Below, in pieces: positions 7,888 to 61,213 of a stretch of DNA of 64,000 bases. Source of the DNA: Erythroxylum novogranatense (lineage: Eukaryota > Streptophyta > Magnoliopsida > Malpighiales > Erythroxylaceae); the NCBI GenBank assembly GCA_029891385.1, contig CM057232.1, forward strand, positions 61,689,824 through 61,753,823. The letters run 5' to 3'. The position numbers and the translations under genes are program-made. The notes beneath the pieces are model-generated. The model had not been told where the DNA came from, searched no databases, and was given only the letters and a program-made list of their open reading frames with translations. Numbering within the stretch: position 1 is the first letter of the stretch; the number at the start of each line of letters is the position of its first letter.

Positions 7888-7969
7888 AAGTCGACTTGTA
7901 TGGAGATGTAAGTCGACTTATACCGATTCGATACTAATAAGTCGACTTGTATACTGTGTAAGTCGACTT
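7888..7969. repeat. AAGTCGACTT palindrome array (LTR copy)
   Basis: Four exact copies start at 7888, 7910, 7939 and 7960, with start-to-start spacing 22, 29 and 21. The same block precedes the conventional LTR start at the 3' end of the element (15785-15867; one of the four copies there has a C-to-T change). See also the leader array at 10948-11076. Confidence 0.95.
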
Positions 7970-9224
7970 ATCGTATACAAGATCTCGTGAGATTGTTAGA
8001 GTAGTGCCCTAAAGGCAATCCCCTTTAGCACTTTTTATTCATAGTCATGTACAGACTTTATGAATAAATAAAGAAAGGCATGTTTCATTTATTTGATGTT
8101 CGTTATGAATTGATATTGATCTTTAATCAAATTAATGAAGTCCATGATATATGACATAGCATGAAGGAAATTATGATGTGATCATACTACTGAGATTCCT
8201 ATCATGTGCAATTATGTCAGTATCTAAATTCTCCCTAGTCATAGGATTAATGAGACTGGACATCATTAATCTAGACAGACTAGCATATGTTATACTCCTT
8301 GATTGGATCAAGCAGTGGATCTCAGAAACTGTAAATATGGGATATTTAGAGTTGACATGTGGATGCTTACTAGCGGTAGTAAGTACATTGGATGACCTGT
8401 CATGAGATCATCACATGGATGTCCTATTCTAATGTCAGTGATAATCTCATCATAGCAATGGTGCAAGTATCCTTAGACTTGAGGTACTCAAGGATATCTT
8501 GGATATTGATTCTGTGCTTTGACTCCATTCCTTGTTGCCTTTCAGAGGTTACTCATAGGGTGATACTTGGGTACAGCTTGAGGTATTCGAAGGTAATTGA
8601 GTAGCCAATAGAGGATTCATCACTTCTGTGATAGTAGAAGAGATACCCTGGCCTCTTGTCAGGATCATTACTTTAAGTCTCTGGCCAGAGCATAAATATG
8701 TCATGAAGAGTGTCTTCATGGACATATAAAGTAATGAGTCCCAAGACAGAACCGATATCACTGGGCTAGACTTAGTCTAGTAAGAGTTGACACTTTGACC
8801 ATACTCATAACCAAGTGGGGTATAGGATGTTGAAAGGACGAATTGCACAGTAATTGTCTATGGAAGGGTTCGTGATCTGGTTCGTGATGAATTCATCAAA
8901 CCAATTACTTTCCGGTCAATTGGGGGTCATGATGTGTTGCTAGACGCCGCTCATGACTTGCTCAGATTAAGTGTTAATCTAAGTGGCCAACATAACCGGG
9001 AACCTAGAGGGTCATACGCATAAGAGTGTTTCAGAGAATCCGTAAAATAGTATTGGACTGAGTTCCAATTATGGAGAGCATTAGGATTAAATGGATCCCG
9101 ATGAGATCGAGATATGTCCTGATGAGATCGCGACATCGATATTGCTGAAAAAGGTTTTCGAGGGTTTATCCCATATCGGGACCCGGTAGACCGGTAGGAC
9201 CGACCCCAGTGTGACTGGACCACT

Positions 9225-9296
9225 TCAGCAATATATATACATATATATATATGATTAATTAATTAAATAATTAATTAATATATATATATATATATG
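9225..9296. repeat. AT-only inverted repeat in copia LTR
   Basis: Alternating AT flanks a near-symmetrical core of ATTAATTAATTAAATAATTA. It can fold into a long AT hairpin. Equivalent hairpins lie in the other five LTRs of this family, at about 17110-17181, 23818-23880, 29882-29935, 37705-37757 and 41371-41433. It precedes a conserved ACGTGG on the coding strand. A TATA-type promoter role is possible but not shown. Confidence 0.8.
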
Positions 9297-9819
9297 CTAT
9301 GCACGTGGGATGGAGGAAGAATGGAGAAACTTCCATTACTAAGCCTAGTCATTAAAGCATTAAATGGCTAAATGACAAAATCAAAAAGGTGAATGGAAGA
9401 TGATGATCGTTGGATATGAAAGAATATATAGAAAGAGTTTCTAAGAAGGTCTTAAGCCTATGTTCTTCGTGGGTTTGGCTTTTGAAAGAAGAGAAAAAGT
9501 TTCCTTCCAAAAGGCATACGATCATCTTCATCTTCCAAGCTTCATCCTTCATCTCTCCTCCATCGATTTTCCAAGCTCTCCAGAATAAGGTAGGGTCTAG
9601 CAGCCTTTACTTTGTTCTATCTATTCCCGGGTCAAAGGGGTTTGTCCCGGTTAGGTTTTCTGATCTCTGCGTGGATACCTTTAGAGATAGTCTCTATTGG
9701 CTATTCAGGTTTGAGTCTTCATACCGACACATAGATCCTGGCCTTCGGGAAGGTCCCGGTAACAATTTTTTTTTTCCGCACCTGGTACATGTGATGTACC
9801 TCCCGGGATTTTCCTACAG

Positions 9820-9832
9820 TGGTATCAGAGCC
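9820..9832 (+). other. Primer binding site of copia A
   Basis: TGGTATCAGAGCC starts two bases after the LTR terminal CA. It matches the 3' end complement of initiator methionine tRNA, the usual primer of plant copia elements. Confidence 0.92.
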
Positions 9833-10947
9833 ACTTGTGTCGTGTATGAAGCTAAAACCCTAGCTAGGTCGGACTTCCTATTTGAATTTGACGTTGATGC
9901 ATGCATGCTGTCCAAATTTCGAATTAATATAGGGATATGTTTTTTGAAATTTTTCTGCCCAGAATTGTTCATAACATTTTATAGAATATGTCTGTGAAAG
10001 ATGAGAATTTATCAATTTGATTTGATATAGTTTTGCTAATTTATTCCCTAAGGTTCTAGATGCTGTTTTGTGACACATTCTGTGAACAGGCATGTGTATA
10101 AATTCGATAATAAATTCTAGAAAAATTGATTTTCGGATTGGCCTTCACCAACATTTCCCTAAGATGTTTTTGAATATCTATGTGGATGGAAAAGTGTTTT
10201 CAAGGTGATTTTCTATTTATTCACGAATTTATTCTATGCTGTTGGGAATAGCTGTGTTGATGAACACAGATTTTGAATCGGTTTTGTTGCTTAGGTTGAC
10301 TGAGTTTTTGATAGCTATAAATCCTAAAAACATTCATGAGGCATGTTCTGAACATGTATTAACCTGTGTAAGTTTCTCAGAATTTATTTAAATTGTTTCA
10401 ATGATTATGTCGAGCAATGTGTAGTACTTGGCAGTTTTGTGAACATTGCTGGGACTGTTTTGCTTGGCATAATTGAATGTGTATTTTTCAGTTCCAATGC
10501 CTTGGATCATTTTTAATGTGATTGAAAATGAGTTATCTTGATGTAGTATGCTTGCCAAACTGAATTGCCTGAATTTGGTTTTCCAAGAATTTTCGGATGC
10601 CGAATAGGTCACATTAGCGTCTCGTTAGTGTATTTCATTATCTTGCTTGTTTTGGCCGTCATAATATTTTGTGACTTGTGTCGAAGTAATTTGATAACGT
10701 ATGGACTAGCTAGAGATGCTTAGGGTGATAATTTGGTGTTTCCTAAATTGTTTGGATATTTATGAGTAATGACTCATTTTCAAGCTTTTCTTGTATGGTT
10801 TGACTGTATATGGCAATCATGTAACAATGAAGTGTTCATTGGTACATCAAATTAATAGATATTACCCTAGGTATGATGGCATTGCGAATTGGGATTACAT
10901 GGATTGAGGAATTAGCCGATTAGAGATAATAGCAATTTTCGTTGGAT

Positions 10948-11076
10948 AAGTCGACTTATACAGGACACAAGTCGACTTGTTCAAGGTCTTGTCATAAGTC
11001 GACTTGTATCATGATATAAGGCGACTTGTGCGTGGGCAGGGGCATAAGGTGACTTGCATTATTTGTAAGTCGACTT
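10948..11076. repeat. AAGTCGACTT palindrome array (leader copy)
   Basis: Six copies start at 10948, 10969, 10996, 11018, 11046 and 11067. Four are perfect and two have a changed centre (AAGGCGACTT, AAGGTGACTT). Spacing alternates 21, 27, 22, 28, 21. The flanks (TCCAACGAAAATTGCTAT complement on one side, GGGATGATGGATGATTATA on the other) match B and C, so the array sits at a fixed point of the leader. Confidence 0.95.
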
Positions 11077-11274
11077 GTGACATGCTCAAGAGGGATGATG
11101 GATGATTATAAGGAAAGATTCAATGTGATTGATGAAACCTAAATCATTCCATATAGTCCTGGCGACTATAATCCTTCAGCTTGGAGTCTAGAGTTCGAAA
11201 TCCCTCCTCGGTATATGAAAACTAACGCCTTCCATTAATATGGTAAGAACCAGAGTTCTTATAGGGTTGGGTTG

Positions 11275-11659
11275 TTGGGTAAACCCAAGCTCGCTCTATA
11301 CGGATATGTTCGAACCATGAAAATGTGATTTTCGGATTAATGAGTTGGTTTTCACTAGAAGCGTTGGTTTGTTGAGTAAACTCAAGGTCAACGTGGACAG
11401 AGGCGAAATTGGGTAGCATACATCAGATGTATGCGCATCAAAGAGTTGATAACCCAATGTAAGTGCACACATCAACAAGTTGATAGCACGGATCGATAGT
11501 TGTGTCTAAGATGTAAGTGGTATATTTGATACCTCCCGAGACATAAGGTGGCTTGTTGGGTAAACCCAAGGTCATGCTTAATATCGGTTATCGATGATGC
11601 AATTGGTATGTTCGATACCTACCGATTGACCTAAGTTGTGGCTTGTTGGGTAAACCCAA
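11275..11659 (+). repeat. Four copies of a leader hairpin
   Basis: TTGGGTAAACCCAA occurs at 11275-11288, 11556-11569 and 11646-11659. TTGAGTAAACTCAA occurs at 11372-11385. The stem is kept while its middle pair changes from G-C to A-T on both sides. Related copia copies have the same hairpins at matching places (B 29235, 39002, 39186, 39284; C 35244, 35426, 35522; E 45718, 45872, 45956). Confidence 0.85.
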
Positions 11660-11849
11660 GGTCATTCTTAGCAATATCGGATATCAACCCACTAGGACAT
11701 TATGTCATCTTGTTTCTTTGGCTTCGTAATGAGGGTTATGGATTCTATGAAACTAGTGGGAGCTTTTTGCATATCATTCAAGTCCTTATGATTATGCATC
11801 TTTTCTTATTCTAACATTCTTTCTCTCTTTCCATTTAGGTTGGTTGAAG

Positions 11850-12700
11850 ATGTCTTCCAGTGTGAACTTACGCTCGCTAATGGATTCCAACAAGTTAACT
11901 TGACCGAATTTTCTTGACTGGCTACGGAATCTGAGAATTGTTCTCAGATCTGAGGAACTGGGATACATCCTAGATGTTCCACTTCCAGATGCACCTGCTG
12001 TCGATGCTTCTGATGAGGATCAGAAGGCATATCGTAAGCATCTAAAGGACAGTGACATGGCTACTTGCATTATGCTTGCCTCGATGTCACCAGAGCTGCA
12101 GAAGCAGCACGAGTCCATGGATGCTCACACTATAGTCTTTCATCTTAGGGAGCTATTTGATGAGCAAGCTCGGTCTGAAAGGTTCGAGACCTCAAGGCTT
12201 CTCTTCACCACAAAGATGGCTCCAGGGACATCTGCTGTCCAGTATGCCCTGAAGATGAATAGCTATATTGAGAGATTGGTCGTCTTAGGTTTTGTAATGG
12301 ATTATGAGTTAAGTATAGACTTAATTCTGGTTGGATTGTCCGACAGTTATTCACAGTTCGTGTTAAACTATCGGATGAACCAAATATCCACAACAATTCC
12401 TGAGCTGATCAATCTGCTCAAGAGCAGTGACCAGCTATCAAGAATGATAGCAAGCAAGTGCTAATGGTGGCTGCTTCTTCTTCTGGTTCAAAGAAGAAAA
12501 AGAACCTAAAGAAGAAGAAGGCCAAGAAACCAAAGGGAAGTGCCATCAAGAAGAAGACCAAAGAAGCTGCCCCGAAAGGAACTTGCTTCCATTGTGGTAA
12601 AGATGGCCATTGGAGGCGCAATTGCAAAGTCTATCTGGAGTCACTGAAGCAGAAGAAGGCATCAGATGCCTCAACTACTTCGGTATGTTTGTCATTAAGG
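11850..12700 (+). pseudogene. Copia A gag (broken)
   Basis: The nucleocapsid/capsid part of the copia polyprotein, which would package element RNA in cytoplasmic particles. The start ATG at 11850 gives MSSSVNLRSL, matching MTSSVNLRSL in B. The frame has a TGA at 11901-11903 where relatives encode glycine, then stays open to 12464. A frameshift near 12455 moves to the frame holding a lysine-rich stretch and the zinc knuckle CFHCGKDGHWRRNC (CX2CX4HX4C) around 12587-12630. Leucine-rich helices such as HLRELFDEQARSERFETSRL are as expected for the UBN2/DUF-type gag of plant copia. It is followed directly by the protease. Confidence 0.85.
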
Positions 12701-13932
12701 TTATCTGCTTCGATCACAACATTTGGCTATTTGATACTGGTTGTGGCTCACACATATGTAATGATATGTAGGGCCTAAGGGACAGTAGACAGCTCATGAA
12801 GGAAGAAGTAGACCCGCGTGTTGGAAATGGAGCAAGAGTTGCTGCATTAGCCGTAGGAACCTATGTTTTGTCTCTCCCTACTAGGCTTGTACTTGAATTG
12901 GATGATTGTTATTTTGTACCCGTTTTGAGAAAGAACATATTATGCATTTCTTGTTTAAATAAATTTGGTTTCCATTTGAATTTTAATAGCAATGGTTGTT
13001 CTATTAATTCTAATGGAATGCTTTATGGTACTGGTACATTATGCAACGGTATTTACATATTAGATATGTCTCATCCAATTATGAATGTCAATGACACCAA
13101 AAGACATAAAAGAGATAATTTAAAGTCAACTTACTTATGGCATTGTCGGATTGGCCATATAAATGAGACACGCATCGCTAAACTCCATAAGAGTGGCAGT
13201 TTAGGGTCATTTGATTATGAATTATATGACACATACGAATCTTGTTTATTAGGCAAGATAACTAAGTTACCCTTCAAGGGAAAGGGTGAACGAGCGACTG
13301 GAATATTAGACCTAATACATTCAGATGTATGCGGTCCGATGTCCATCCATGCTAGAAGTGGTTGTCGTTACTTCATTACCTTTATCGATGATTATTCTCG
13401 ATATGAGTACTTGTATCTGATGAGATACAAATCTGAAGCGTTTGAAAAGTTCAAACAATTCAGAAATGAAGTAGAAAACCAGCTTGGTAAAAGTATCAAG
13501 GCATTACGATCCGATCGTGGTGGAGAATACTTAGACCAACAGTTTCTGGATTATCTCAGAGATAATGACATTTTATCTCAGTGGACTCCTCCTTACACAC
13601 CATAGCACAATGGTTTGGCTGAAAGGAGAAATCGAACCTTGTTGGACATGGTACGATCAATGATGGGTTTCGCAAAGTTACCAAAATCGTTTTGGGGGTA
13701 TGTGCTAGAGACAGCTGTTTACTTGCTAAACAGAGTTCCCTCTAAGACAATTGATGTTACTCCATATGAGATGTGGACTAACAGAAAACCTTATCTTTCT
13801 AATTTGAAAGTTTGGGGTTGTCCTACTTACGTGAAGCGGATTCAGTCAGATAAGTTTGAAGCAAAGTCTGACAAGTGTTTGTTTGTAGGATATCCTAAAG
13901 AGACCATGGGATATCAATTCTACCTTATTTGA
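12701..13932 (+). pseudogene. Copia A protease and integrase (broken)
   Basis: The aspartic protease active site reads LFDTGCGSHICNDM from about 12727, followed by a TAG at 12769-12771. From 12796 an open frame contains the integrase zinc-binding HHCC segment (WHCRIGHI, then CLLGK) and the catalytic core. The three acidic residues are in HSDVCGP, LRSDRGGEY and AERRNRT. A TAG at 13603-13605 replaces the expected glutamine before HNG. Integrase inserts the cDNA into the chromosome. The frame fails near 13930, where relatives continue FYLTEEQKVF. The order protease, integrase, RT defines the Ty1/copia type. Confidence 0.85.
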
Positions 13933-15240
13933 GGAACAAAAGGTGTTTGTTTGAAAGCATGTTGTCTTCTTAGAGAAAGAGTTTCTTCTGAAGGCGACAG
14001 AACAAAGTCGAACTTGAAGAAGTTCAAGATGCTCAACAGCACCGACGATCAACCGCTGAACTCGAGGCTGTCACTCATTCGGATGAAGTAATAGCCAACC
14101 TTCTTCTACACGAAGTTCGAGGGTCAAGTAGGATACGCCTTGTTCCCTAGAGATATGGATTTCGTGGCTCGAGCAGAATGACGTGTGCATATAGAAGATG
14201 ATGAGCTGCTACCTATGAAGAGGTTACGAAAGTTCGAGTCTAAAAAATGGCTTTGCGCCATGAAAGCGAAATGGATTCCATGTACGAAAACCAAGTATGG
14301 ACTTTGGTGAATGCACCAAGGAATCAAGCCCATAGGGTGAAAATGGGTTTCAAGAAGAAAACCGACATGGATGGTAATGTGATTACTTATAAAGCAAGGC
14401 TTGTGGCGAAAGGATTTCGCCGAGAGACAAGGAGTTGACTATGACGAGACCTTCAGCCCCGTAGCAATGCTTAAATCCATTCGGATACTCCTAGCCATTG
14501 TCGCTCATTATGATTATGAGATATGGCAAATGGATGTGAAGACAACTTTCCTTAATGGAAATCGGCGAGGATGTGTACATGACCTGACCGAGGGCTTCAC
14601 TTCCATCGATGGCGAAAAGGTATGCAAGCTTGAAATCCATTTATGGATTGAAGCAAGCATCCAGAGTTGGAACATCCGTTTTGATGAGTCAATCAAAGAG
14701 TTTGGTTTCTCACAAAATCCGAATGAACACTGTGTGTACAAGAAGGTTAATGGGACTGCAATCGTATTCCTTGTGTTATATGTAGATGACATATTATTAC
14801 TTGGAAACGATGTTTATATGTTGCAATCAGTTAAAATTTGGTTGTCCAAACAATTTGCGATGAAAGACCTTGGTGAAGCAACTTTTATCCTCGAGATAAG
14901 AATCTATATAGATAGATCAAAAAGGTTGCTTGGTCTTTCACAATCATCGTACATAGACAAGATGCTAAAGAGGTTTAGCATGGAGCAATCCAAGAGAGGG
15001 TTTCTTCCCATGTCTCATGGGATAACACTCTCGAAATCTATGTGTCCTAAGACACAAGATGAGAGGATGCGCATGGATCAGATCTTGTATGCGTCTGCAG
15101 TAGGATCGATCATGTATGCTATGTTATGTACGAGGCCCGATGTATCGTATGCTCACGAGTGTCACGGCAGATACCAATCGGATCTGGTGAGGATCCTTGG
15201 GTGGTGTCAAGAATATCCTCAAGTACTTGCGAAGGACTAA
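13933..15240 (+). pseudogene. Copia A reverse transcriptase (broken)
   Basis: The region 13933-14400 carries the linker between integrase and RT, with several frameshifts compared with B. From 14401 the RT reads QGVDYDETFSPVA, then MDVKTTFLNG, then the catalytic YVDD box at 14779-14790. The expected GLKQASRSWN is changed to WIEASIQSWN by indels. RT copies genomic RNA into cDNA in the particle. Many of the indels fall where B has CAG or CTG and A has CG or a lost base, so some damage may be in the assembly rather than in the genome. Confidence 0.83.
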
Positions 15241-15760
15241 GGATGTTTTCTTGATATATGGAGATGGAAATCTCCAAGTGAGCGAAACATCGGATGCCGT
15301 TTTCAATCGATAAGGATGATTCAAAATCCCACCAAGGTTATGTTTTCACACTAAACGGCGAAGCGGTCGATTGGAAGAGTTCCAAACAAGAGACGATGGC
15401 GATTCAACGATCGAGGCGAGTACATTCTTTGCATCGAGGCGTGAAAAGGAAGTTGTTTGGATCAAGAAGTTCATTCTCGAACTTGGTGTGGTTCCTAGTC
15501 GTGATGGGCCCATCTGGTTGTATTGTGACAACAATGGGGCTATTGCTCGAGCAAAGGAACCAAGGTCTCACCAATGATCTAAACACGTACTCCGCAGATA
15601 TCATCTGATTCGAGAGATCATTGCCAGAGGTGATGTCGCGATCGAGAGAATTCCCACAGAGCAGAACATTGCTGATCCATTGACGAAGCCATTGTCACAG
15701 AAGAATTTTGATTCTCATGTACTCGCTTATGGTATTAGATACCAAGGCGATTGGCTTTAG
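15241..15760 (+). pseudogene. Copia A RNase H, C-terminal end of pol
   Basis: Pieces in different frames give GYVFTLNGEAVDWKSSKQ, LYCDNNGAIARAKEPRS, RYHLIREIIARGDV, then NIADPLTKPLSQ and the terminal RYQGDWL with stop TAG at 15758-15760. RNase H removes the RNA strand during cDNA synthesis. The end is identical in sense to that of B and C. The polypurine tract follows at once (GGTCAAGTGTGAGAT). Confidence 0.82.
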
Positions 15761-15775
15761 GTCAAGTGTGAGATT
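15761..15775 (+). other. Polypurine tract of copia A
   Basis: GTCAAGTGTGAGATT directly precedes TGTAGG at 15776. B and C have GTCAAGTGGGAGAT directly before TGTTAG. A second copy of the end of this tract, CGTGAGAT, lies at 15883-15890 just before the old TGTTAG start. The tract was therefore duplicated when the LTR grew. Confidence 0.75.
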
Positions 15776-17702
15776 TGTAGGTGTAAGTCGACTTGTATGG
15801 AGATGTAAGTTGACTTATACCAGTTCGGTACTAATAAGTCGACTTGTATACTCGTGTAAGTCGACTTATGCGTGTACAGTACCGTGAGATTGTTAGAGTA
15901 GTGCCCTAAAGGCAATCCCCTTTAGCGCTTTTTGTTCATAGTCATGTACAGACTTTATGAATAAATAAAGAAAGGCATGTTTCATTTATTTGATGTTCTT
16001 TATGAATTGATATTGATCTTTAATAAAATTAATGAAGTCCATGATATATGACATAGCATGAAGGAAATTATGATGTGATCATACTACCGAGATTCCTATC
16101 ATGCAATTATGTCAAGATATCTAAATTCTCCTAGTCATAGGATTAATGAGATCGGACATCATTAATCCCACGGCACTAGCATATGTTATACTCTTGATTG
16201 GATCAGCAAAGGATCTCGAAACCGTAAATATGGGATATTTAGAGTTGACATGTGGATGCTTACTAGCGGTAGTAAGTACATTGGATGACCTCGCCATGAG
16301 ATCATCACATGGATGTCCTATTCTAATGTCAGTGGTAATCTCATCATAGCAATGGTGCAAGTATCCTTAGACATGAGGTACTCAAGGATATCTTGGATAC
16401 CGATTACGTGCTTTGACTCCATTCCTTGTTGCCTTTCGAGGTTACTCATAGGGTGGTGCTTGGAGTACAACTTGAGGTATTCAAGGTAATTGAGTAGCCA
16501 ATAGAGGATTCACCACTTCTGTGATAGCAGAAGAGATACCCTAGCCTCTTGTCAGTATCATTACTTTAAGTCTCTGGCCAGAGCATAAATATGTCATGAA
16601 GAGTGTCTTCATGGACATATAAAGTAATGAGTCCTAAGACAGAACCGATATCACTGGGCTAGACTTAGTCTAGTAAGAGTTGACACTTTGACCATACTCA
16701 TAACCAAGTGGGGTATAGGATGTTGAAAGGACGAATTGCATAGTAATTGTCTATGGAAGGGTTCGTGATCTGGTTCGTGATGAATTCATCAAACCAATTA
16801 CTTTCCGGTCAATTGGGGTCATGATGTGTTGCTAGACGCCGCCATGACTTGCTCAGATTAAGTGTTCATCTAAGTGGCCAACATAACCGGAACCTAAAGG
16901 GTCACACGATAAGAGTGTTTCGAGAATCCGTAAAATAGTATTAGATCGAGTTCCAATTATGGAGAGCATTAGGATTAAATGGATCCCGATGAGATCGAGA
17001 TATGTCCCATGAGATCGCGACATCGATATTGTCAAAAAGGTTTTCGGGGTTTATCCCATAAGGGACCTTTAGGCCGGTAGACCAACCCAAGTGGATCGAA
17101 CCACTTTAGTAATATATATACATATATATATATGATTAATTAATAAAATAATTAATTAATATATATATATATATATATATGCTATGTGGGATGGAGGAAG
17201 AATGGAGAAACTTCCATTACTAAGCCTAGTCATTAAAGCATTAAATGGCTAAATGACAAAATGAAAAAGGTGAATGGAAGATGATGATCGTTGGATATGA
17301 AAGAATATATAGAAAGAGTTTCTAAGAAGGTCTTAAGCCTATGTTCTTCGTGGGTTTGGCTTTTGAAAGAAGAGAAAAAGTTTCCTTCCAAAAGGCATAC
17401 GATCATCTTCATCTTCCAAGCTTTATCCTTCATCTCTCCTCCATCGATTTTCCAAGCTCTCCAGAATAAGGTAGGGTCTAGCAGCCTTTACTTTGTTATA
17501 GCTATTCCCGGGTCAAAGGGGTTTATCCCGGTTAGGTTTTCTGATCTCTGCGTGGATACCTTTAGAGATAGTCTCTATTGTCTATTCAGGTTTGAGTCTT
17601 CATATCGACACATAGATCCTGGCCTTCGGGAAGGTCTCGGTAATAAAAATTTTTGTTTTCCGCACCTGGTACATGTGATGTACCTCCCGGGATTTTTCTA
17701 CA
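15776..17702 (+). repeat. Copia A 3' LTR
   Basis: It starts TGTAGGTG and ends TTTCTACA, giving TGTAG/CTACA terminal inverted repeats. It is collinear with the 5' LTR (7880-9818). It differs repeatedly at CAG or CTG sites, for example CTCGAAACCG at 16215-16224 against CTCAGAAACTG at 8321-8331. The ACGT-containing box after the AT hairpin is lost here (GCTATGTGGGAT). Confidence 0.88.
15785..15867. repeat. AAGTCGACTT palindrome array (3' LTR copy)
   Basis: Copies start at 15785, 15806 (AAGTTGACTT), 15836 and 15858, with spacing 21, 30 and 22. It is the partner of the array at 7888-7969. Confidence 0.95.
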
Positions 17703-18536: not shown

Positions 18537-18548
18537 TTTCTCCCCATC
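18537..18548 (-). other. Polypurine tract of chromovirus X
   Basis: The complement reads AAGATGGGGAGAAA between the pol stop (18549-18551) and the LTR. This is the usual second-strand primer of Del/Tekay-type elements. Confidence 0.8.
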
Positions 18549-21306: not shown

Positions 21307-21309
21307 CTA

Positions 21310-50990: not shown

Positions 50991-50999
50991 CTTAAATCT

Positions 51000-51278: not shown

Positions 51279-51369
51279 TTCACTGCGACGAGGTAAGCGT
51301 TAGTCGCGGCGAACAAAACAAAAAAAAACTACATGAGCCGCGGCGAACAGCGAAGTTCGCTGCGGCGAA
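51279..51369. repeat. TTCGCYGCGGCGAA array in Z, second
   Basis: Four copies start at 51279, 51300, 51334 and 51356, with spacing 21, 34 and 22. Confidence 0.9.
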
Positions 51370-51867
51370 TCACCCAAAACAAAACACAAATTCTATGGAT
51401 CCTACACAAATTGCACAAACATTCAATTTATCATCCACATATCAACAATTCTCTTCAATCTAATCATGCTTTATTAGGAAGAACACAGAGCTAACAAAGG
51501 GGAATCAAATTATTCAAGCGGAAGGAAATCCTACCTACTACTCTAATTCTCTTGGTTAAATCCTCCCCACACTTAAACAATATAATCATGCTCAACAATA
51601 CGCACGCTGGTATAAAACATAGCACAATTATATAGTAAATGAAGGAAAGAAAACCCGACACTCGAGGTGGGTCTTGTAGCTCGGTATGGACTCTTGTTTG
51701 ATATCCAAGCTCCAGCTCGGCGACTTGGTTGCTAGTCGACTCACGTCCATACTACACTTGTTGTGCTCTGTAAAATCGTCAAAAGAAAACTTTCTCCAAA
51801 AATATAAATCGATGGCGGGATATAAAGTTTCTACAAATTGAGCGTAGCTTCTTCATCAATAGAAACA
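51370..51867 (-). other. Element Z spacer where RT-integrase should lie
   Basis: Intact Athila elements have roughly 3 kb of RT, RNase H and integrase between protease and extra ORF. Here there are about 500 bp with no such motif. CTCCCCACACTTAAAC at 51568 is a second purine-type motif (complement) like that at 49283. The deletion that removed pol probably ended in this stretch. Confidence 0.6.
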
Positions 51868-52320
51868 TCAAGCATGTGAACTCCCAAGAGAATAATCTTC
51901 ATGAGGATGCTTCATAGCTTCATACATGTTGAAGCTAACTTGTTGATCACCAACTTCCATGGTGATCTCCCCTTCCTTCATGCTAATCATCGTGCTCGCA
52001 GTCCGTCGTCCAAGGATCAAGGAAGTGTCCTGCACAACTTCAGAAGACATATCTAGAGCGTAGAAATCTGCAGAAACACTAATCCTTTCACCGGACCAAG
52101 ATGTCCTCGATGATTCCCATTTGGATGACGGAAGGATCTATCGATAACTGTAAGACTACGAAGTAGGCTTTATGCTCTTAACGCCTGGGGCTTCATAAAT
52201 GATTTAGCCATTCGTTAATCGCCGCTCCCAAATCCAATAGAGCTCTTCCAATGGTCACCTTTCCTATAACACAAGGAATGGTGAGCGATCCTGAATCCGA
52301 CACTTCACCGGATTTGGGGC
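51868..52320 (-). pseudogene. Element Z aspartic protease (partial)
   Basis: In two frames the minus strand reads IPCVIGKVTIGRALLDLGAA, matching the ALxDLGA active site of Athila proteases (LDLG here), then GIIEDILV and FYALDMSS. It ends with SLILGRR, EGEITMEVGDQQVSFNMYEA and MKHP, a conserved C-terminal patch. A frameshift lies near 52250, and the sequence after the active-site alanines is disrupted. It would cleave the Gag-Pol precursor if intact. Confidence 0.75.
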
Positions 52321-53597
52321 TTAAATAAAGCCGACACATTTGAGCTTACTTGGACACGTTCGTTCGGCGAAATTTCCTCTTGTTTGTGCACAAGTCCTTG
52401 GTACTTGGCGTGGCCGCACTTTCTTAATCAAATCCAGCGAGGGCACGTTGACTTCAACCTTCCCAAACAGGTCAATGATTTCTTTTTCGTGTTTGAGCTC
52501 ATTGACTCTCTTGCTCATCAGATACGAGTTCGGAAAAGGGAGGTCTTTTAAGTTGACTTCCTTACTTGCTGGTTCATTTCTGCTCGATTTATCCTTATCA
52601 GCTCTTCTTCCTGAAATGCTCGATGATTGCTCTTTATCCTCAATTGTTGATTGCTTCTTGTTTCTCAACAATTCTTCTTCGCGATCACTCTCTGATCGCA
52701 CAGCTTGCTTCTCTCTCACTTGAGGCGCTTCTTCAACCTCAATTTCCTCGGTGCATTCTTCTTCTTCAGGAATGTCGAAATGCACTTTCTTTCCACTCCT
52801 CAACTCAATTGCATTTAAACTCTTCGGGTTTATTACCGTGTTGGAGGGAATGGTTCCACTGCTCCGAGCTTGGTTGTCACTCAAATTATTAGACAATTGG
52901 GTCACATAGGCGTTCATGTTCTCGGCCTTGGTCTCCCATTGCTCCATGCGTTTCTCCAAGGCACTAAAGCGGGCAGCATTCTTAGCGGAGTCCTGTTGGA
53001 TGAGGTTCGTGATGGCGTTGAATTGATTTGCTGTGGAAGTTCGTTCCTCTTTCATCAACGTCATCATACCATGCAGAAGCTGATTAGTGTCCTCTTTTGG
53101 TGGCTGTGGTTGCACCGTCAACGCTTGCTGATCGGGAAATTGGTTTGTAGATGGTCCAGCTCCACTCCCTTGTTGAAAACGGTTGGGTGCTCTTCCTTCA
53201 TTATTCCTCCAACTGAAGTTAGGATGAGATCTCCATCCTTCGTTATATGTGTTGGAGTACGGGTCCCACTTAGAATTTTGTCTGCTTGGGTAGACCGCAG
53301 ACACTTCTTCATACCTTCCAGGACAGACGCTGGAAATGTGCATCACCGATCCACAAGATTCGCAACTAGGTGCGACCAGTTCAGTGGAAGGTGACAGGCG
53401 ATGCACATTCAAATTCTTAAGCTCCGCCGTGATTGAGGATAACGGGAAGTTATCCGATGTTCCAAGAATCTACTTTCGATTCCGGGCTCTCCATTCTCTT
53501 AGTTTGAGCCGTCATGGCTCTACTTCATTCACATTCACGGAATCGCGGACCTATATCGTTGATGATTGGGGCCATCCTCTTTATCGGGGCCCAAGCT
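52321..53597 (-). pseudogene. Element Z gag, C-terminal part
   Basis: An open frame of 363 codons (53412-52321). A zinc knuckle CESCGSVMHISSVC (CX2CX4HX4C) lies near its start, followed by an asparagine/glutamine-rich stretch, then NAIELRSGKKV, the acidic EEEECTEEIEVEEA segment and FPNSYLMSKRVNELKHEKEI, which in Athila elements bridges gag and protease. A coiled-coil-like ALEKRMEQWETKAENMNAY is present. It is the longest intact frame in the window. Confidence 0.8.
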
Positions 53598-54389
53598 TAC
53601 AGTGCGGTGAGGTCAATCAGCGAACCTCCGATCAACATCCAACATTCCTTTTCTTGATTCTTTACCCCATCATAAAAATATTGAACCAATTGTTCATCGA
53701 GATTTGATGATGGGGCACGCAGAGATAACAGATCTTGGAATCTGTTCCAAAAATCATCTGAGGACTCGTCATAATCTTTTTGGCGAAATATATCTCCTTT
53801 CTCATCGACGACGTCTAGAAGCTGGAAAATACTTTTCGGAAAAGCTTTCATAAGTTGGCCCAACTGTGATAGGCATTCGCGACATGCCTTGGGAGGCTCA
53901 TATACCACTCCGGGCCTTCCTTCTAACGACAAGTGGAATACCTTCCACAACACAGGTCGGATGTGCTCCTACGAGCTTCATACTTTGACAGATCATTGTG
54001 AGGGCCTGAAGATGCATGTAGGGGTCCTCTCCCGCCAAACCGTGAAATTTGGGTAGGGAGTTAATCAATAAACCTTTAACTTCGAAATTTACGTCGAAGT
54101 TAGGGCAGGCAGCAGTGAAAGGATCGTAGTTTACGTCCGAGGTTGTAGCTTCTCGAATGGTTCTACGTCTGATGTTCGCATTGTTGTCATCTACGCGTTC
54201 CTGGTCACCGTTAAGACCGTGATCTCCATTTCGGGGTAGTTGACCGGGATATTCTTGGTGTTCAGCCATCTCAGATTCTAGTCGATCTAGTGTGCTAAGT
54301 CTTTCTTGCTCTCTCTTGTTTTTCCTAAGTTGTCTAAGGTGTCGCTCAATTTCAGGTTGAAAATGAACTAGCCTAAGTCTACGGGGCAT
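53597..54389 (-). pseudogene. Element Z gag, N-terminal part
   Basis: The start ATG is at 54389 (MPRRLRLVHFQPEIERHLRQ); an ATG two codons upstream (54395) is less typical. The core reads NFDVNFEVKGLLINSLPKFH, then GLAGEDPYMHLQ, then after a frameshift near 53950 ESSDDFWNRFQDLL and LDEQLVQYFYDGV. This is the retrotransposon gag domain of Athila/Tat type. It ends with a TGA-type break before the knuckle-containing frame at 53412. Confidence 0.82.
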
Positions 54390-54458
54390 GCACAAGAGAA
54401 GTTCACCTAAGATAGCTCACTAAAGCGACAATGGATATGAAGGCTTCAATTCACTCGG

Positions 54459-54586
54459 GTTATTGCGGCGTATAGAACTCGCTGCAACGAACTGAATAAA
54501 TTGTAACTTTCGCTGCGGCGAATATATGAACTCGCTGCGGCGAATGATGAACTCGCTGTGACGAATGATGAACTCGTCACAGCCAA
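54459..54586. repeat. TTCGCYGCGGCGAA array in Z leader
   Basis: Six copies start at 54459, 54478, 54509, 54531, 54552 and 54573, with spacing 19, 31, 22, 21 and 21. It lies just upstream of gag on the coding strand, like the leader arrays of the copia elements. Confidence 0.92.
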
Positions 54587-54783
54587 GAAGCACGGATCAG
54601 CAAAGCAAACGAATCAGAATAAACACTTAAAACAAATCAGAATGAAATCACAAACAGGATTAACACTAAAAACACTTAAGCAGAAAAGAAATTAAATAAA
54701 ATTATGCAATGCAAACAAAATGCAACGACAAAAATTAAAATCAAAACAAACACTGGCTAACCTAGAGAATCAATTAATTTGAC

Positions 54784-54801
54784 TCCCCGATAACGGCACC
54801 A
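54784..54801 (-). other. Primer binding site of element Z
   Basis: TCCCCGATAACGGCACCA is the complement of TGGTGCCGTTATCGGGGA, close to TGGCGCCGTTGCCGGGGA used by Athila/Tat elements (Asp tRNA). It lies four bases from the LTR. Confidence 0.88.
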
Positions 54802-55843
54802 AATTTGATCGGCGGCTTATCGTTCAATTTAAGAATTGATCCTTGGAAACCGGTCAAATAAAATTTATACCAAGGATTGCAATACAGGATGCAACCTCGG
54901 GTCGACTCTCAAGGAACCAATGCACCAATTGATTCTAAGACTAGCCTAATGTTTGAATTATGCATGCAATGAAAGCAATAAAAGGGGGTTTTGATTGATT
55001 AGTCTAAAATTAAACTAAACTGAAGTAAGAATAAATGTTTTGGGATTTTAGAAAGTTAAGCGATTGAAATTAAACAAGTGTGAAATCAAATTACTAAAAC
55101 TCTCTTGAAAATGTAGCTCTAGTCATCATCGTTCAAAATAATATCAGAGTTTGAAATCCACTAAGTTTCGAAAGCTAAACCTTAACAACTCGTTAAGTCC
55201 AAAAATTAATTAATCAACTCGATTAATTAAAGTTTGTTAAAAACCTTAGTGTATGTATATAATGATTAATGCAATAAATCGATCAAACAATAACACAACC
55301 AACTCAATCAAACACAACTAGGCGATTAAATCGATTAATGCAATCATCCAACCGATATACATGAACTCCATGTATTTAAGCACAACATTCAACAATAATC
55401 AATCCATAACATATATCAAAGTTTAACATCCGATTAAACTATAACGGATTCAATCCATCATACAATGTATTCTCCAACTCGGAGTTAATACGAAAATATA
55501 ATGTAAATCTAAAACTAAGATCGATTACCCCGCTTAAGCTCACGAAACTCAGACCCTCACTCCATCTTCAAGAGATCGGAGACTTAGCCACGCATCACGG
55601 CGAGAAGAGTCCATCATCGCTGGACACCCGACGCTGCTCATGACTCGAGACGGTGAAGGATGAAGGAATGGTCGCGCGAAATGAAGGCGTAAGAGAAGGT
55701 GGTGAATGTGGGCGATGTACATTGCCTCCGAATCAAAACTGCAAAAACCAAAGAAAACAAAACCTATTAGACGAACTGAGAAAACAGAGAAGAAGAAGTT
55801 AACCTCGGGAGAGCGGCCGCTTGTTTTTGCCCTAAATGGCAAG

Positions 55844-55852
55844 ATTTTATAG
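55844..55852 (-). promoter_or_regulatory. TATA-like box of element Z LTR
   Basis: The complement reads CTATAAAAT, 65 bp downstream of the palindromic array on the coding strand. This position fits the U3/R promoter. There is no transcript evidence. Confidence 0.55.
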
Positions 55853-55917
55853 GGAGTTGTCTTTGGTCGGGTCGATCGGTGGATTAATTTCCATTTATAG
55901 GCCGGGTTACCCGACAT

Positions 55918-56050
55918 TCGCTGCGGCGAGTAGCTGTAGTTCGCTGCGGCGAAGTCCGGATGGTCACTCGTCGCGGCGAATACATTAAATACCATTAATT
56001 TGTTTGCGACGAATGGAGGGTCTTGATTATTGCGGCGAATCTCGCGGCAT
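55918..56050. repeat. TTCGCYGCGGCGAA array in Z LTR
   Basis: Copies start at 55918, 55940, 55967, 56000 and 56026, with a sixth fragment at about 56039. Spacing is 22, 27, 33 and 26. It lies in U3, just upstream of the TATA-like box. Confidence 0.9.
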
Positions 56051-56297
56051 GTTTACTTCTTAAATGTTGACTCCTTTGGTCCTACAAATACAACCTATTT
56101 GCAGTATCAATTGTCCCAATAAAAATTATGCAGAATTAATGACAAATGACAACAAAATACTGACAATGTGCAATTTATCAAAACTCAATGTGCGGGACCA
56201 AAATAAGCATAAAAATCATAGATCAGGAGTCAACAGAAGCATAATTACTAGAGAAAACGGGCCTAATTTATAGTATAAATTTGGTCCAATCACATGT

Positions 56298-57505
56298 ACC
56301 CACCTTGGATTCCTTGCTTTTACTGGTTTAGGAATGCCTGACCTCTTGTTCCTCTTGATCCTCTTTACTCACTTGATTTCCTAAAATAAGAACCAAAATC
56401 CCATTCAATAACTCATGCTGAAATAATATTTCCATTCTTAAATTCCATCCAAAATTTCATATCCTTAGAGACTGATTCAGAACTTCACTACTTCACAAAA
56501 CTTGTAGATCTATGTCTCTAGTTTACAACGCATCAAAAATCACTTCAATTGGACTCCTATAAAAAAAGATATACCCAAAACACTAAAATCCATCTTTGTT
56601 GGAAACCGAGGACTCGTCACGGCGAACAGCCTCCGCTCGTCACGACAGATACATCTGCCTCGCAGGTTGCGATGAACGATTTGTGTACGTCGCGACGAAC
56701 AACCTCGTGCACGTCGCGACGAACGACTTATGCACGTCACGACGAACAACCTCGTGCACGTCACGACGAACAACTTGTTCACATCGCGACGAACAGTCTT
56801 GTGCACGTTGCAACGAACAGCCTTGTTCACGTCTCGATGTGTGGGTCTGGAAAACGTCTCCGAACCCAACTTTCTTGCTTTTTCCCACTTAAATCCTTCC
56901 CCTTTTACACATGCAACACATTTAAACCTTAATTCATGTCTTAAACTTCAGTTCTAGACTCATTCTAACCCAAAATCAAGCATAAACACAACATGATCAT
57001 CAACTCAAGGGAATTTCTACAAAGTTTTTCGAAAACCCTAAACCATCATTTCCAACATCATTCTAAACAAATCTAGGGTTTAATCCATCTCAAACAAGAA
57101 GAAATAAACTTATACTTACCAGAGAATGCTTCAAATCCTTCGAAAATTGTCAAACCTAGCTTTCCTCTTTTCTTCTTCTTCCTCTCTTCCTACGACTCCC
57201 TCTTCTCCTTTCCTTTCTTTTTATTTTCCTTTCTTTTCTTCTTCTAACTCTAACACTTAAGCTAAAAGAGAGCAAAATGACTACCATGCCCCTCCTTGCA
57301 AAGCCTTAAACCAACCTACTTAAGTGACTTGCCCATTTTACCCTCATACACTTTTATTCTTTCATTACCACTTATTCCACACTAATCTCAAATTAAACTT
57401 TAATTTTCCACTAACACTTTCACTAAAATCAAACTATGCAACAATTTATACAATCAACATAATTCATACTTAATAACATCAAGAAAAACAATTTGGGGCC
57501 TAACA
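56298..57505 (-). repeat. Solo LTR Y, right piece
   Basis: It is the continuation of 47055-48109 after element Z. It holds the CpG palindromes at 56615-56839, then AT-rich DNA and a T/C-rich stretch (57160-57250), and ends GGGGCCTAACA. The open frames at 56549-56957 follow the palindromes and are not genes. Confidence 0.85.
56615..56839. repeat. CGTCGCGACG palindrome array in Y LTR
   Basis: Ten copies start at 56615, 56638, 56665, 56688, 56712, 56735, 56759, 56782, 56806 and 56830. Spacing is very regular at 23-24 after the first (23, 27, 23, 24, 23, 24, 23, 24, 24). The unit resembles CACGTCGCGACGAACAACCT. It is more regular than the copia and Athila arrays. Confidence 0.93.
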
Positions 57506-58613: not shown

Positions 58614-60222
58614 TGTTGGAAAATCGAGTTCGGATCTGATCCGACTGCAGCGGAACAATCACGAAATTTTTTCGTGACTTTTGATTTCCCAAAAACCAAG
58701 ATCTATTTAATTCTATAAAATGGTTAACAAGAATCAAAATAAAGCGGAAATTTAATTCGTACCTTATTCTAAAACTCGATCTTTGTCTTGATGCATCCCT
58801 CGAACCGTTTTCGAAATCGATCCGTCTCAACCACCGTAGGCACACAAGTATCCAACCTCTAACGGTATCCACAGAACAAGTTGAGAGAACTCTGTAACTT
58901 TTACAGAGAGGGTTAAGCATGAAGTGCTAGCTCCATAGAGCTCAAGCCTATTTATAATAATCTTAGGATGATTTAGTAATTTAATTGAAATTAAATATTA
59001 ATATCAGTTAACCTTTAATTAGAATTAAAAATAATTTTAATTAAATACCAATTATGCCCAAATAAAATTCAATATCTTATATTGATCCTTATTTATTAAA
59101 TATTTCATAATTAATCATAAAGTTTCTCAAACTTTATAATCAAGTCCAACTTGATTAAATTAACTTTGCTCTCTCCAACTCATTCTATATGTGTGACCCA
59201 TTAGGTTCCCAAATATGTAGGCAATGATTATAAATTATAATTCTAATTCATAAGTAGAATTAGATAAATTAAAACTCCTTTTAATTTATCTTTAATTCTC
59301 CAATTAAACAATTTATAATCATAGATCAAGATTGACGTCTGGCAACGTATCATGACCACCCAAATCTTCAAGAATGTCAAAGTGCTTTTGACTAACCTTT
59401 TTCTGCATGATTTTTTCGTAAAATTCAATCCTTTCATCAACTAATGTTCCAATTAGATATAAAGCATGGAATTAATGTCTACTCTATTTTGAGTCTAATT
59501 ATATTAGTTCTCCGCCATTAGTTATTGATTCAATTAATGATATTTGTAAACTGTTTACAAAATATCATTCCACCTTAGCCAAGGATTTCCCGAATCAATA
59601 TTAATCGAGAACAACAGGACATTCTCCCTAAATACTTTAGGGTGATGAATCCTATCTTAATCATTCAACTATCTCCATACAGTTCATGTTATATCCAATG
59701 ACTACCGTTTAAACGACCTTTATAGATCACGAGTAGTATCAAAATATAACAATCCCCATACAAGATAACTTTGATGATCTCAAGTCAAATGATCACTTAT
59801 ACAATCATCACAATGAGAATTCCATAGACATACAAGTAATGTTTCAAATGGATTTCTCATATCGGGTCTGTTCAGTGAACTTGTTCTCTAACAAGAACCC
59901 ACACGTTTATTTAAGTATCTCTATACTTTAGCTATGAGATCGACTACTTCCTTCATAAGGAAAAATGAAACATGTGCTAGTCTTTTTACGTTTTATTAAT
60001 GTCCAATTTTAATAAAACAATGACTAGGAACATTTTAGGAATAATTTATAAATGCAATATGAATGTTATAATTATAATCTCATTATAATTTCATTTGCAA
60101 TGTAAAATTATCCCATGGACTTTATCATATACATCTAAACATGTACAAGATAAAGAATGCCTTTTAAATAATTTGTCACTAAACTACAACCAAAGCGATT
60201 GGCTGTAGGGCATAAACAACCA
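58614..60222 (-). repeat. Copia E 5' LTR (right)
   Basis: It starts TGTTGGAAAATCGAG and ends GCATAAACAACCA, followed by AATAC. It pairs with 4206-5813 along its full length. LTR divergence is clearly higher than between the LTRs of C, which fits E being older. Confidence 0.9.
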
Positions 60223-60992
60223 AATACTAATTACAAAGCAATTGTAACACACCCAAGAATCAACTGAAAGAAATTACCAATTGAGAGAAAGGGAATTTTA
60301 CCTATCTTTAATGCTAACCTAACTGATTATGAATTATTGGATTGTTGGTTATAAACTATCCTAGGGATGATTACTCTCCATTGAGTTATAACCATTAACT
60401 CTAAATCATAAACCATAATCAGATTATGGAGGTTGCAATCTATCAGTTCACAACCTATCTAAAACCCTAATTTGTTCTGAAGTTCTCTAATAAACTATCG
60501 GTACCCGATGAAAGATCTTTCTTCGCACAAATTCTCGATCTAATTCAATTCTTGTTTCTATTAAATCACCTAACTCTCCTTAGTCCAATTTAATCATTTT
60601 TCATTTGATTCACCCTCTCAATTTATTATCGAATTACACAATCGCATAATCAAACTATAACAATATCCAATAAATATATAACAATCAAATTTTTATTAAT
60701 TTAAGAATAAAATTTTGAAGGTGAGTTTAAAACATCCTCAACATTCTAGATCCTATCATCAACTTTTCAATCCAATTCTATATAATAAAAATTGAAACTA
60801 ATAAGAATTACAATCTAAATGAATGATAGGAGGTAAAGACGTAGAGAAACCTCCTAATATGAGAAGTACGTCGAGTCAGCTTCTTCTCCTCTTCTCTCTT
60901 CCTTCTTCTCTTCCTCTATCTCTCGATGATCTCTCTCTAAGGTTCTCAAGGTGGTTGATGCCAAAGCTCCTTTCTCTTCCTCTATTCTTGTT

Positions 60993-61002
60993 CTTTAAAT
61001 AT
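60993..61002 (-). promoter_or_regulatory. TATA-like box of LTR W
   Basis: The complement reads ATATTTAAAG, about 95 bp downstream of the palindromic array on the coding strand. It is comparable with the layout of element Z. Weak evidence. Confidence 0.35.
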
Positions 61003-61095
61003 CCTCTTGTTTTTTTAGGTAACCTTGGTTTGAAAGGTCCAAAAAATTCATCAAAACTTGACGCTCTTGAGTGTCTGCGTGTCTATCCGATGCAA

Positions 61096-61213
61096 GCCAC
61101 TATTGTGGGCCATTCTTTGAGCTTCTGTCATGATTATGGCATGTAGGCCATGATCATGGGTCAAATCTAGTGCTTCCGCCATGATTATTGCTTGACATGC
61201 CACGATTGCGGGC
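61096..61213. repeat. GCCATGATTATGGC-type array in LTR W
   Basis: Five copies start at 61096 (GCCACTATTGTGGGC), 61127, 61147 (GCCATGATCATGGG), 61178 and 61199 (GCCACGATTGCGGGC). Spacing is 31, 20, 31 and 21. CCATGATCATGG is a perfect 12-bp palindrome. The position in the LTR matches that of the Z array. Confidence 0.85.

What the first reader, a model, noticed from the sequence alone, without database searches (positions are those of the whole stretch)
7888..61213. Unrelated retrotransposon families each carry a private array of short palindromes
Seen directly: copia A and B use AAGTCGACTT; copia C uses AGTCGATTGG-type; Athila-like Z uses TTCGCYGCGGCGAA; chromoviruses X and Y use CGTCGCGACG; LTR W uses GCCATGATTATGGC-type. 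Most are self-complementary and most contain CpG. They form clusters of 4-13 copies. Spacing is about 19-24 bp, in copia A/B, Z and W often alternating with 27-34 bp. Arrays are confined to leaders and LTR U3. Known parallels: Tnt1 elements have repeated and palindromic U3 boxes acting as enhancers, and VANC anti-silencing proteins of VANDAL transposons bind family-specific motif arrays. Inference: these arrays are binding platforms for a dimeric host or element protein, and different lineages acquired different motifs under the same geometry.
Basis: partly seen in the sequence, partly recalled or inferred. Interest (0 to 1): 0.87.

Follow-up and report, generated by a model that had tools for sequence, protein, structure and literature searches.

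The report
Palindrome arrays in plant retrotransposons
Several unrelated jumping genes in this plant genome carry clusters of short mirror-image DNA words at preferred distances, probably docking sites for paired regulatory proteins; clusters of this kind have been described before in one group of plant elements.

Summary
The core observation holds. Clusters of short, mostly CpG-bearing palindromes exceed shuffled controls (15 against a mean of 0.6) in copia elements A and B, gypsy element X, related LTR Y, Athila-like Z, more weakly in copia C and W. In the 1.3-Gb genome AAGTCGACTT pairs number 46,434 at spacings 18-24 bp, 1,366 at 23-26 and 13,896 at 27-32; the letter-reversed palindrome gives 0. 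Of 295 minus-strand leader flanks, 217 have an intact palindrome beside them; 8 genomic sites have C's word instead. CGTCGCGACG pairs number 5,901, with another preferred spacing (24 bp in 18 of 50 listed). Alternation of about 21 and 26-34 bp occurs in A, B, Z, W and two further motifs; X, Y, C and other motifs lack it. Best reading: operator arrays on DNA for dimeric proteins. RNA pairing and protection from CpG decay got little support. Palindromic, element-specific, CpG-rich arrays are known from Sireviruses (PMC2829016); A, B and C fail two Sirevirus features. Apparently new: gypsy and non-Sirevirus copia carriers, spacing classes, motif switch. The binder is unknown.

The parts
7887..7970 (+). 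Element A, 5' LTR: array at the LTR start, 4 copies of AAGTCGACTT (spacings 22, 29, 21)
   Evidence: LTR limits by TSD CCTTC
10947..11077 (+). Element A leader array, 6 copies (21, 27, 22, 28, 21), about 1.1 kb after the PBS at 9820
15784..15868 (+). Element A, 3' LTR: array at the LTR start, 4 copies (22, 29, 22)
39504..39682 (-). Element B leader array, 8 copies (21, 31, 22, 30, 20, 23, 20)
35739..36025 (-). Element C leader array at the place of the A/B array: about 14 degenerate copies of a GTTCCAATCGACTAGAAC-like imperfect palindrome
   Evidence: 8 genomic sites with CCAATCGACT beside the same flank; exact 15-mer pair 0 matches
42958..43128 (-). Element X, 5' LTR array, 8 copies of CGTCGCGACG type, starting 663 bp into the LTR
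17710..17876 (-). Element X, 3' LTR array, first part (array cut by the insertion of A)
7807..7866 (-). Element X, 3' LTR array, remainder on the other side of A
56614..56840 (-). LTR Y array, 10 copies of CGTCGCGACG type (23-24 bp, one 27)
55917..56039 (-). Element Z, LTR array, 5 copies of TTCGCYGCRGCGAA type, two of them poor, ending about 16 bp before a TATA-like word at 55900
54478..54586 (-). Element Z leader array, 5 copies (21, 21, 22, 31), one of them poor
51279..51369 (-). Element Z internal array 1, 4 copies (22, 34, 21), upstream of a pyrimidine-rich stretch
50767..50946 (-). Element Z internal array 2, 7 copies (22, 28, 22, 27, 21, then 46), inside a putative intron before ORF2
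   Evidence: splice sites are my reading
61095..61213 (.). W array, about 5 degenerate copies of GCCATGATCATGGC (31, 20, 31, 21); a TATA-like word at 61001 if read on the minus strand
7880..17702 (+). Element A (copia type), TSD CCTTC
23302..42679 (-). Element B (copia type), TSD CTACT, interrupted by C
29325..38994 (-). Element C (copia type) nested in B; TSD CATTT/GATTT, one mismatch
6421..43791 (-). Element X (gypsy type), TSD GTTAG, holding A and B/C; its 5' LTR lacks about 1.3 kb present in its 3' LTR
48109..56297 (-). Element Z (Athila-like), TSD ACATG, 3' LTR truncated
   Evidence: Athila label from PBS and layout, recalled

Best explanation
These are arrays of dyad-symmetric operator sites: enhancer-like platforms on DNA for dimeric DNA-binding proteins, most likely host transcription factors, that drive or permit element transcription. 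Shown: the palindromes, their repetition, spacing classes, conservation over spacers, CpG enrichment and positions. Inferred: that a dimer binds each palindrome, that 20-23-bp neighbours are bound together, and that binding activates transcription. Lineages keep the array site and change the word (A/B against C) or extend the array into the LTR (A; probably by priming at an upstream polypurine tract, since PPT-like sequences bracket the extra 110 bp; inference).
For: Cluster excess over shuffles. Genome-wide pair counts with zero in the letter-reversed control, for AAGTCGACTT and CGTCGCGACG itself a palindrome of equal composition. AAGTCGACTT neighbours (<=1 mismatch) in the window plus 20 regions, 14 chosen for this motif: 93 at 18-23 bp, 0 at 24-25, 31 at 26-32, 8 at 51-52, of 132. 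Cores keep mean pairwise score 0.88 against 0.47 for short spacers in A/B (spacers shuffled 0.34); 0.74 against 0.38 in Z_int, shuffled 0.31. Symmetric degenerate flanks in window plus 25 regions: -1 pyrimidine 155 of 155, +1 purine 151, -2 purine 152, +2 pyrimidine 145, without positive left-right covariation at these two positions. CpG observed/expected 1.0-2.1 in the 10 arrays measured, 0.35-0.81 in the rest of the same LTR or leader for A, B, C, X, Y, but 1.19 in Z. Z's LTR array ends about 16 bp and W's about 94 bp before a TATA-like word. Motif switch at a fixed leader site.
Against: No binding data and no motif-to-factor match. TATA-like words are common chance matches: Z's LTR has four, one before its array; Y's only one lies before its array; A's only LTR one is about 1.4 kb after its LTR array; none in X's 5' LTR, one about 1 kb after the array in its 3' LTR. 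The 23-26-bp trough is a property of AAGTCGACTT: CGTCGCGACG has 31 of 50 listed pairs at 23-26. X, Y, C and the arrays in L020 (AACGACGTCGTT), L025 and L029 do not alternate. Part of the regularity is inherited from tandem units of 42-52 bp, and genome counts are not independent. Between LTR pairs, non-CpG differences are higher inside arrays, 46 of 605 against 115 of 6047 (X aligns badly, but A and L026 show it too), so nothing speaks for constraint after insertion. Of 13 copia relatives from other assemblies only L010 has a strong array, though most are short. Excess pairing at flank positions 3-4 of neighbours (P 0.004, 0.002) and weakly within copies at position 4 (P 0.043) is unexplained.
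Confidence: 0.6

Rival explanations
1. RNA-level function: neighbouring palindromes pair in the transcript as hairpins for dimerisation, packaging or translation control.
For: The 9 arrays folded are more stable than full shuffles, sense z -2.5 to -9.9. Copies 20-22 bp apart could form 10-12-bp stems. Outer flank positions 3-4 of short-spaced pairs pair more than shuffled (P 0.004, 0.002).
Against: With only spacers shuffled the sense z runs from -2.6 to +1.3 and the antisense z from -3.1 to +2.4, no consistent sense advantage. Flank positions 1-2 pair no better than shuffled within or between copies. Predicted structures differ between A and B.
Confidence: 0.13
2. Anti-silencing platform: an element or host protein binds the arrays and keeps them free of methylation, as VANC proteins do for VANDAL elements.
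For: Element-specific motif arrays in non-coding DNA that change quickly, as in VANDALs (PMC5735166, PMC10398659, passages). High CpG in arrays.
Against: CpG decay between LTR pairs is not lower in arrays: 16 of 69 inside, 16 of 94 outside, P=0.43, four LTR pairs, X poorly aligned. VANC21 motifs are in one orientation. The five A/B/C ORFs examined gave only gag/pol Pfam hits; I did not search exhaustively for an extra gene.
Confidence: 0.12
3. Host-side targets: palindromic arrays are hairpin sources of small RNAs by which the host silences the elements, and persist as a by-product of another function.
For: Palindrome-rich LTR regions of maize Sireviruses are small-RNA hotspots (PMC5311732 and PMC10760457, passages; the primary 2016 paper was not held). 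Strong folding.
Against: Does not explain why elements keep motif and spacing over diverged spacers. Not tested here for want of small-RNA data.
Confidence: 0.08
4. Neutral tandem repeats whose unit happens to be palindromic, spread by slippage and element amplification.
For: TRF finds tandem periods in several arrays. Spacers are more alike than shuffled: Y 0.61 against 0.35, X 0.46 against 0.33, A/B 0.47 against 0.34. Some arrays repeat 42- or 52-bp units. Without a palindrome filter, 24 of 41 motif arrays had no strongly palindromic best word (some of these are off-centre seeds of palindrome arrays). Higher non-CpG divergence inside arrays.
Against: Cores stay alike where spacers have diverged, above all in A/B and Z_int. 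AAGTCGACTT spacing is bimodal with a genome-wide trough. Symmetric degenerate flanks.
Confidence: 0.07

Closest known systems
Sirevirus repeated motifs (RM boxes), PMC2829016 (parts 1-3 of 7 and passages read)
   Same: [quoted passage not shown] Z resembles this layout (LTR, and before its second ORF).
   Different: Stated there to be absent from classic copia elements; A, B and C have the classic PPT and PBS junction, and X is gypsy. No spacing rule in the parts I read.
Palindromic structured regions of other maize TEs, PMC10760457 (passages)
   Same: [quoted passage not shown] So the general idea is in print.
   Different: The passages give no spacing classes, no set of different words in one genome, no motif switch at one site.
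VANC target motif arrays of VANDAL DNA transposons (PMC5735166, PMC10398659, passages)
   Same: Element-specific short motif arrays in non-coding DNA with fast turnover.
   Different: Motifs in one orientation; DNA transposons; a known element-encoded binder.
ONSEN heat-responsive elements (PMC3907296, passages)
   Same: Copia LTR with repeated sites for a host factor (HSFA2).
   Different: [quoted passage not shown] the arrays here are CpG-rich.
Retand tandem-repeat arrays between pol and 3' LTR (PMC11963269, passages)
   Same: Family-specific repeat arrays in gypsy elements.
   Different: The passages describe tandem repeats, not palindromic sites with a spacing rule.

Membership tests
Sirevirus (for copia elements A, B, C) | Multiple AGGGGGAG polypurine tracts before the 3' LTR | tested here: not met
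   In the roughly 400 bp searched at each 3' LTR, up to 1 mismatch: none in A, one AGTGGGAG in B, one in C; PMC2829016 gives G-to-T at position 3 as common in classic elements
Sirevirus (for copia elements A, B, C) | 5' LTR/PBS junction CA-ATTGG-TATCAGAGC (G for T at position 2 in some) | tested here: not met
   A, B, C all read CTACA-GTGG-TATCAGAGCC
Sirevirus (for copia elements A, B, C) | RT phylogenetic placement in the Sirevirus clade | not tested
   No reference Sirevirus RT set was built; A is copia type by RVT_2
Sirevirus RM boxes (as a kind of array) | High-copy palindromic motif with dyad symmetry | tested here: met
   for A, B, X, Y, Z; C and W weaker
Sirevirus RM boxes (as a kind of array) | CGG-CCG core signature (12 of 13 published RMs) | tested here: not met
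   By inspection no CGG-CCG core in the A/B or X/Y consensus or in C; Z's CCGCGG-type core is a partial resemblance
Sirevirus RM boxes (as a kind of array) | CpG-rich compared with the rest of the element | tested here: met
   o/e 1.0-2.1 in arrays against 0.35-0.81 outside for A, B, C, X, Y; Z's LTR outside the array has 1.19; W not measured
Chromovirus (for X) | Gypsy-type pol with a chromodomain after the integrase | tested here: inconclusive
   Gag, protease, RT, RNase H, integrase hits; Chromo domain 22.5 bits, below the 25.1 cut-off, in the expected place. Y has no coding part here
Athila (for Z) | RT placement and env-like ORF | tested here: inconclusive
   No directed RT search was made; ORF2 weakly matches PF20167 (18.6 bits, cut-off 45); label from PBS and layout is recalled
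VANC target arrays | Motifs in one orientation at high density | tested here: not met
   Motifs are self-complementary, so have no orientation; VANC description from passages
VANC target arrays | Element-encoded anti-silencing protein that binds them | not testable with these tools
   No binding or methylation data

The most novel reading that the evidence does not exclude
Copia and gypsy elements in one genome have converged on a common operator layout: palindromes in pairs about 21 bp apart, pairs separated by about 26-34 bp, read by one structural class of dimerising host factors. The layout is kept while the word is free to change (AAGTCGACTT, TTCGCYGCRGCGAA, TCACGATCGTGA, CCCTCGCGAGGC, GCCATGATCATGGC), and related elements can switch words at one site. 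The word would then be an address that partitions elements among paralogous host factors; CGTCGCGACG, with modes at 24 and 30-32 bp, would be a variant layout.
Probability: 0.25. Interest if true: 0.8.

Novelty: new variant of a known kind. Interest (0 to 1): 0.62.

Why it matters
In the paper read, palindromic cis-arrays are described as specific to Sireviruses among copia elements. If the same design runs through other copia and gypsy elements, it is a general way for plant retrotransposons to build control regions. The tens of thousands of identical sites would also be a large reservoir of binding sites for some host factor, which makes that factor findable: the motif and its preferred spacing are known. 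The A/B-to-C switch gives a natural before-and-after pair for testing how such specificity changes.

Tried and rejected
Genome access: the genome search was busy, then answered from then on, with further busy answers in 76, 80, 83, 87, 89, 92, 96, 97, 99, 103, 105, 106, 112, 116. The TCACGATCGTGA pair count did not complete and was dropped.

Relatives elsewhere: no match in viral contigs (in one search 15 stretches matched a pattern, none a relative). Thirteen copia relatives from prokaryote assemblies, probably contaminants: weak 12-mer clusters in L001, L004, L008, L009, L013, a strong array only in L010, none in the other seven; most hold too little of an element to judge. Rfam: no hit. Protein search: 5073 hits, 120 listed, named ones mostly flowering plants, two under bacterial names; no host identity.

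Considered and dropped: RNA hairpins as primary function; self-symmetry beyond column composition, not found (P 0.95, 0.60, 0.76 for A/B, Z, X/Y), so symmetry belongs to the motif and is not copy-by-copy compensation; protection from methylation; C as a clean long palindrome. GCCTCGCGAGGC exact pairs are rare (10). The nominal probability that 11 of 14 leader palindromes stay intact (0.0006 or 0.011 by assumed rate) ignores duplication and is not used. On checking I lowered the novel case from 0.28 to 0.25, because CGTCGCGACG pairs peak at 24 bp and several further motifs do not alternate.
Full report
What was checked. The window is a nest of plant LTR retrotransposons. Self-comparison gave the LTR pairs, Pfam the coding domains, and flanking duplications the limits of five elements: A CCTTC, B CTACT, C CATTT/GATTT (one mismatch), X GTTAG, Z ACATG (read by eye). 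A, B and C are copia elements with LTRs of about 1.8-1.9 kb and leaders of about 1.8 kb. X is a gypsy element with gag, protease, RT, RNase H and integrase hits and a chromodomain hit below the curated cut-off (22.5 against 25.1 bits). Y is an LTR related to X's (about 66% identity). Z has an Athila-like primer site and layout; that label is recalled.

Observation. A 12-mer scan for near-palindromes with at least four copies in about 320 bp found 15 clusters against a mean of 0.6 in 10 Markov shuffles; the 16-mer version found 10 against 0. Three of the 15 and one of the 10 look like other repeats. Spacings: A leader 21, 27, 22, 28, 21; B leader 21, 31, 22, 30, 20, 23, 20; A U3 22, 29, 21; Z before ORF2 22, 28, 22, 27, 21; W 31, 20, 31, 21; Y 23-24 with one 27; X 17-25. 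Permuting spacings within arrays, alternation over the 10 arrays tested has P=0.00036; Z_leader, Z_U3, X and Y alone give P=0.50. Left out were A's second LTR copy, X's 3' LTR pieces, C, and outlying steps in W and Z. W is degenerate and rests on a local test (P 0.000 to 0.020 by setting).

Genome. The window lies in a 1.3-Gb assembly. AAGTCGACTT pairs: 46,434 at gaps 8-14 (spacing 18-24), 1,366 at gaps 13-16 (23-26), 13,896 at gaps 17-22 (27-32); the control, the pattern read backwards and itself a palindrome of equal composition, gives 0 each time. The first two ranges overlap at 23-24. Sites are copies of amplified elements and so not independent, though the rows listed show many different spacers. 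CGTCGCGACG pairs: 5,901 at spacings 18-28 and 1,542 at 29-36. Of the 50 forward rows listed for each, 31 of the first lie at 23-26 (18 at exactly 24) and 42 of the second at 30-32. The 23-26 trough is therefore not general. TTCGCYGCRGCGAA pairs: 156. GCCTCGCGAGGC pairs: 10.

Family test. The leader flank GAGGGATGATGGATGATT has 331 plus- and 295 minus-strand sites. With AAGTCGACTT 4-34 bases before it there are 359 plus-strand matches, several per site, and 217 minus-strand matches, one per site in the rows listed. Comparing the listings by eye, 25 of the 31 sites on contig C1 have it. Eight sites have CCAATCGACT there instead, among them the window's C and C1:13651290, one of the six C1 sites without AAGTCGACTT. 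The array site is fixed and the word can change.

Fetched regions. Fourteen regions lie around the first AAGTCGACTT sites listed, all on C1, and 11 at arbitrary places, 10 kb each. Neighbour spacings in the window plus the first 20 regions: 93 at 18-23, none at 24-25, 31 at 26-32, 8 at 51-52, of 132; the choice of regions favours 18-24 but not the gap at 24-25. In a wider clustering over all regions there were 96 short and 34 long spacings and none in between; long-long neighbours 2 against 5.3 expected (P=0.043). The first 20 regions gave 38 clusters against 1.3 in shuffles. Further arrays: TCACGATCGTGA-like in L031 (20, 32, 20, 32, 20) and CCCTCGCGAGGC in the arbitrary region L040 (22, 26, 22, 28, 21) alternate; AACGACGTCGTT in L020 (25, 36, 26, 26, 45, 25, 36, 24), GCGAGGCGTCGC in L025 and GCACCATCGTGC in L029 do not. 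The 11 arbitrary regions gave 12 clusters against 1.1, most of them loose. Dropping the palindrome filter gives 41 motif arrays in the window plus 20 regions, 17 with a strongly palindromic best word. In L020 arrays lie in both LTRs of one element and once inside it; in L026 in both copies of a 3.1-kb repeat.

Position. In Z the LTR array ends about 16 bp before a TATA-like word (55900), and W's about 94 bp before one if read on the minus strand. But Z's LTR has four such words, one before the array; Y's only one lies before its array; X's 5' LTR has none; A's LTR array is about 1.4 kb before the only one in its LTR. In Z a leader array precedes the gag region, and two arrays precede ORF2: one before a pyrimidine-rich stretch, one inside what I read as an intron (GTAAGT at about 51047 to GTGTGCAG at about 50701; ATG at 50695; not tested). 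In A, 110 bp with the array precede the LTR start that B and C have, bracketed by PPT-like sequences, which suggests priming at an upstream tract (inference).

How it works. In A/B the cores score 0.88 pairwise and the short spacers 0.47, shuffled 0.34. Flanks are symmetric but degenerate: -1 pyrimidine 155 of 155, +1 purine 151, -2 purine 152, +2 pyrimidine 145. Across the dyad, positions 1-2 pair no better than shuffled, position 3 worse, position 4 slightly better (P 0.043). That fits half-sites read by a protein dimer better than base pairing. RNA folding is strong against full shuffles in the 9 arrays folded, but mostly follows from the palindromes: with spacers shuffled the sense z runs from -2.6 to +1.3 and the antisense z from -3.1 to +2.4. 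Excess pairing at outer flank positions 3-4 of neighbouring copies (P 0.004, 0.002; also position 4 of long-spaced pairs, P 0.005) is unexplained. CpG is enriched in the arrays of A, B, C, X and Y over the rest of the same LTR or leader; Z's LTR outside the array is also CpG-rich, 1.19. Between LTR pairs CpGs decay as fast inside arrays as outside (16 of 69, 16 of 94, P=0.43, four pairs), and non-CpG sites differ more inside (46 of 605 against 115 of 6047; X aligns badly, but A and L026 agree). CpG richness thus reflects the source elements, not later protection or constraint.

What is known. Bousios et al. 2010 (PMC2829016; parts 1-3 of 7 and passages read) describe palindromic repeated motifs in 13 of 21 Sireviruses, a consensus per element, CpG islands, in LTRs and before ENV, and state that classic copia elements lack them. 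A, B and C fail two Sirevirus features, polypurine tract and PBS junction; RT placement was not tested. A 2023 paper (PMC10760457, passages) finds the same maize palindrome in Helitrons and notes that control regions of various TE families are arrays of sometimes palindromic repeats, so the general idea is in print. VANC arrays (PMC5735166, PMC10398659, passages) are in one orientation. ONSEN (PMC3907296, passages) uses repeated host-factor sites but has no CG. Judging by listings and the passages opened, the searches showed no report of such arrays in gypsy elements or of the spacing classes; the library lacks most subscription papers and the key 2016 paper.

Verdict. Real, widespread in this genome, probably a transcriptional operator array; a new variant of a known kind. 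The binder is unknown, and the common-layout idea is attractive but not general across the arrays seen here.

Noticed in passing
L010:4411-4600: A copia relative in a Corallococcus assembly (probable eukaryote contaminant) has about nine AGAATATTCT-type, heat-shock-element-like copies at 16-bp period just inside what looks like its 3' LTR, upstream of TATATAAAC.
   Followed up: partly
window 6421-7879, 17703-18534 against 42890-43791: X's 5' LTR lacks about 1.3 kb that its 3' LTR has, although the flanking duplication GTTAG marks one insertion.
   Followed up: partly
window 7880 and 17702: A inserted into the middle of X's palindrome array.
   Followed up: no
window 7880-7993 and 15776-15885: A's LTR is longer at its 5' end than those of B and C by about 110 bp bracketed by PPT-like sequences.
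   Followed up: partly
window 50132-51400: Z's second ORF has a possible internal promoter and first intron of its own and a weak PF20167 match.
   Followed up: partly
L001-L013: Prokaryote assemblies hold contigs encoding copia-like proteins, probably contamination.
   Followed up: no
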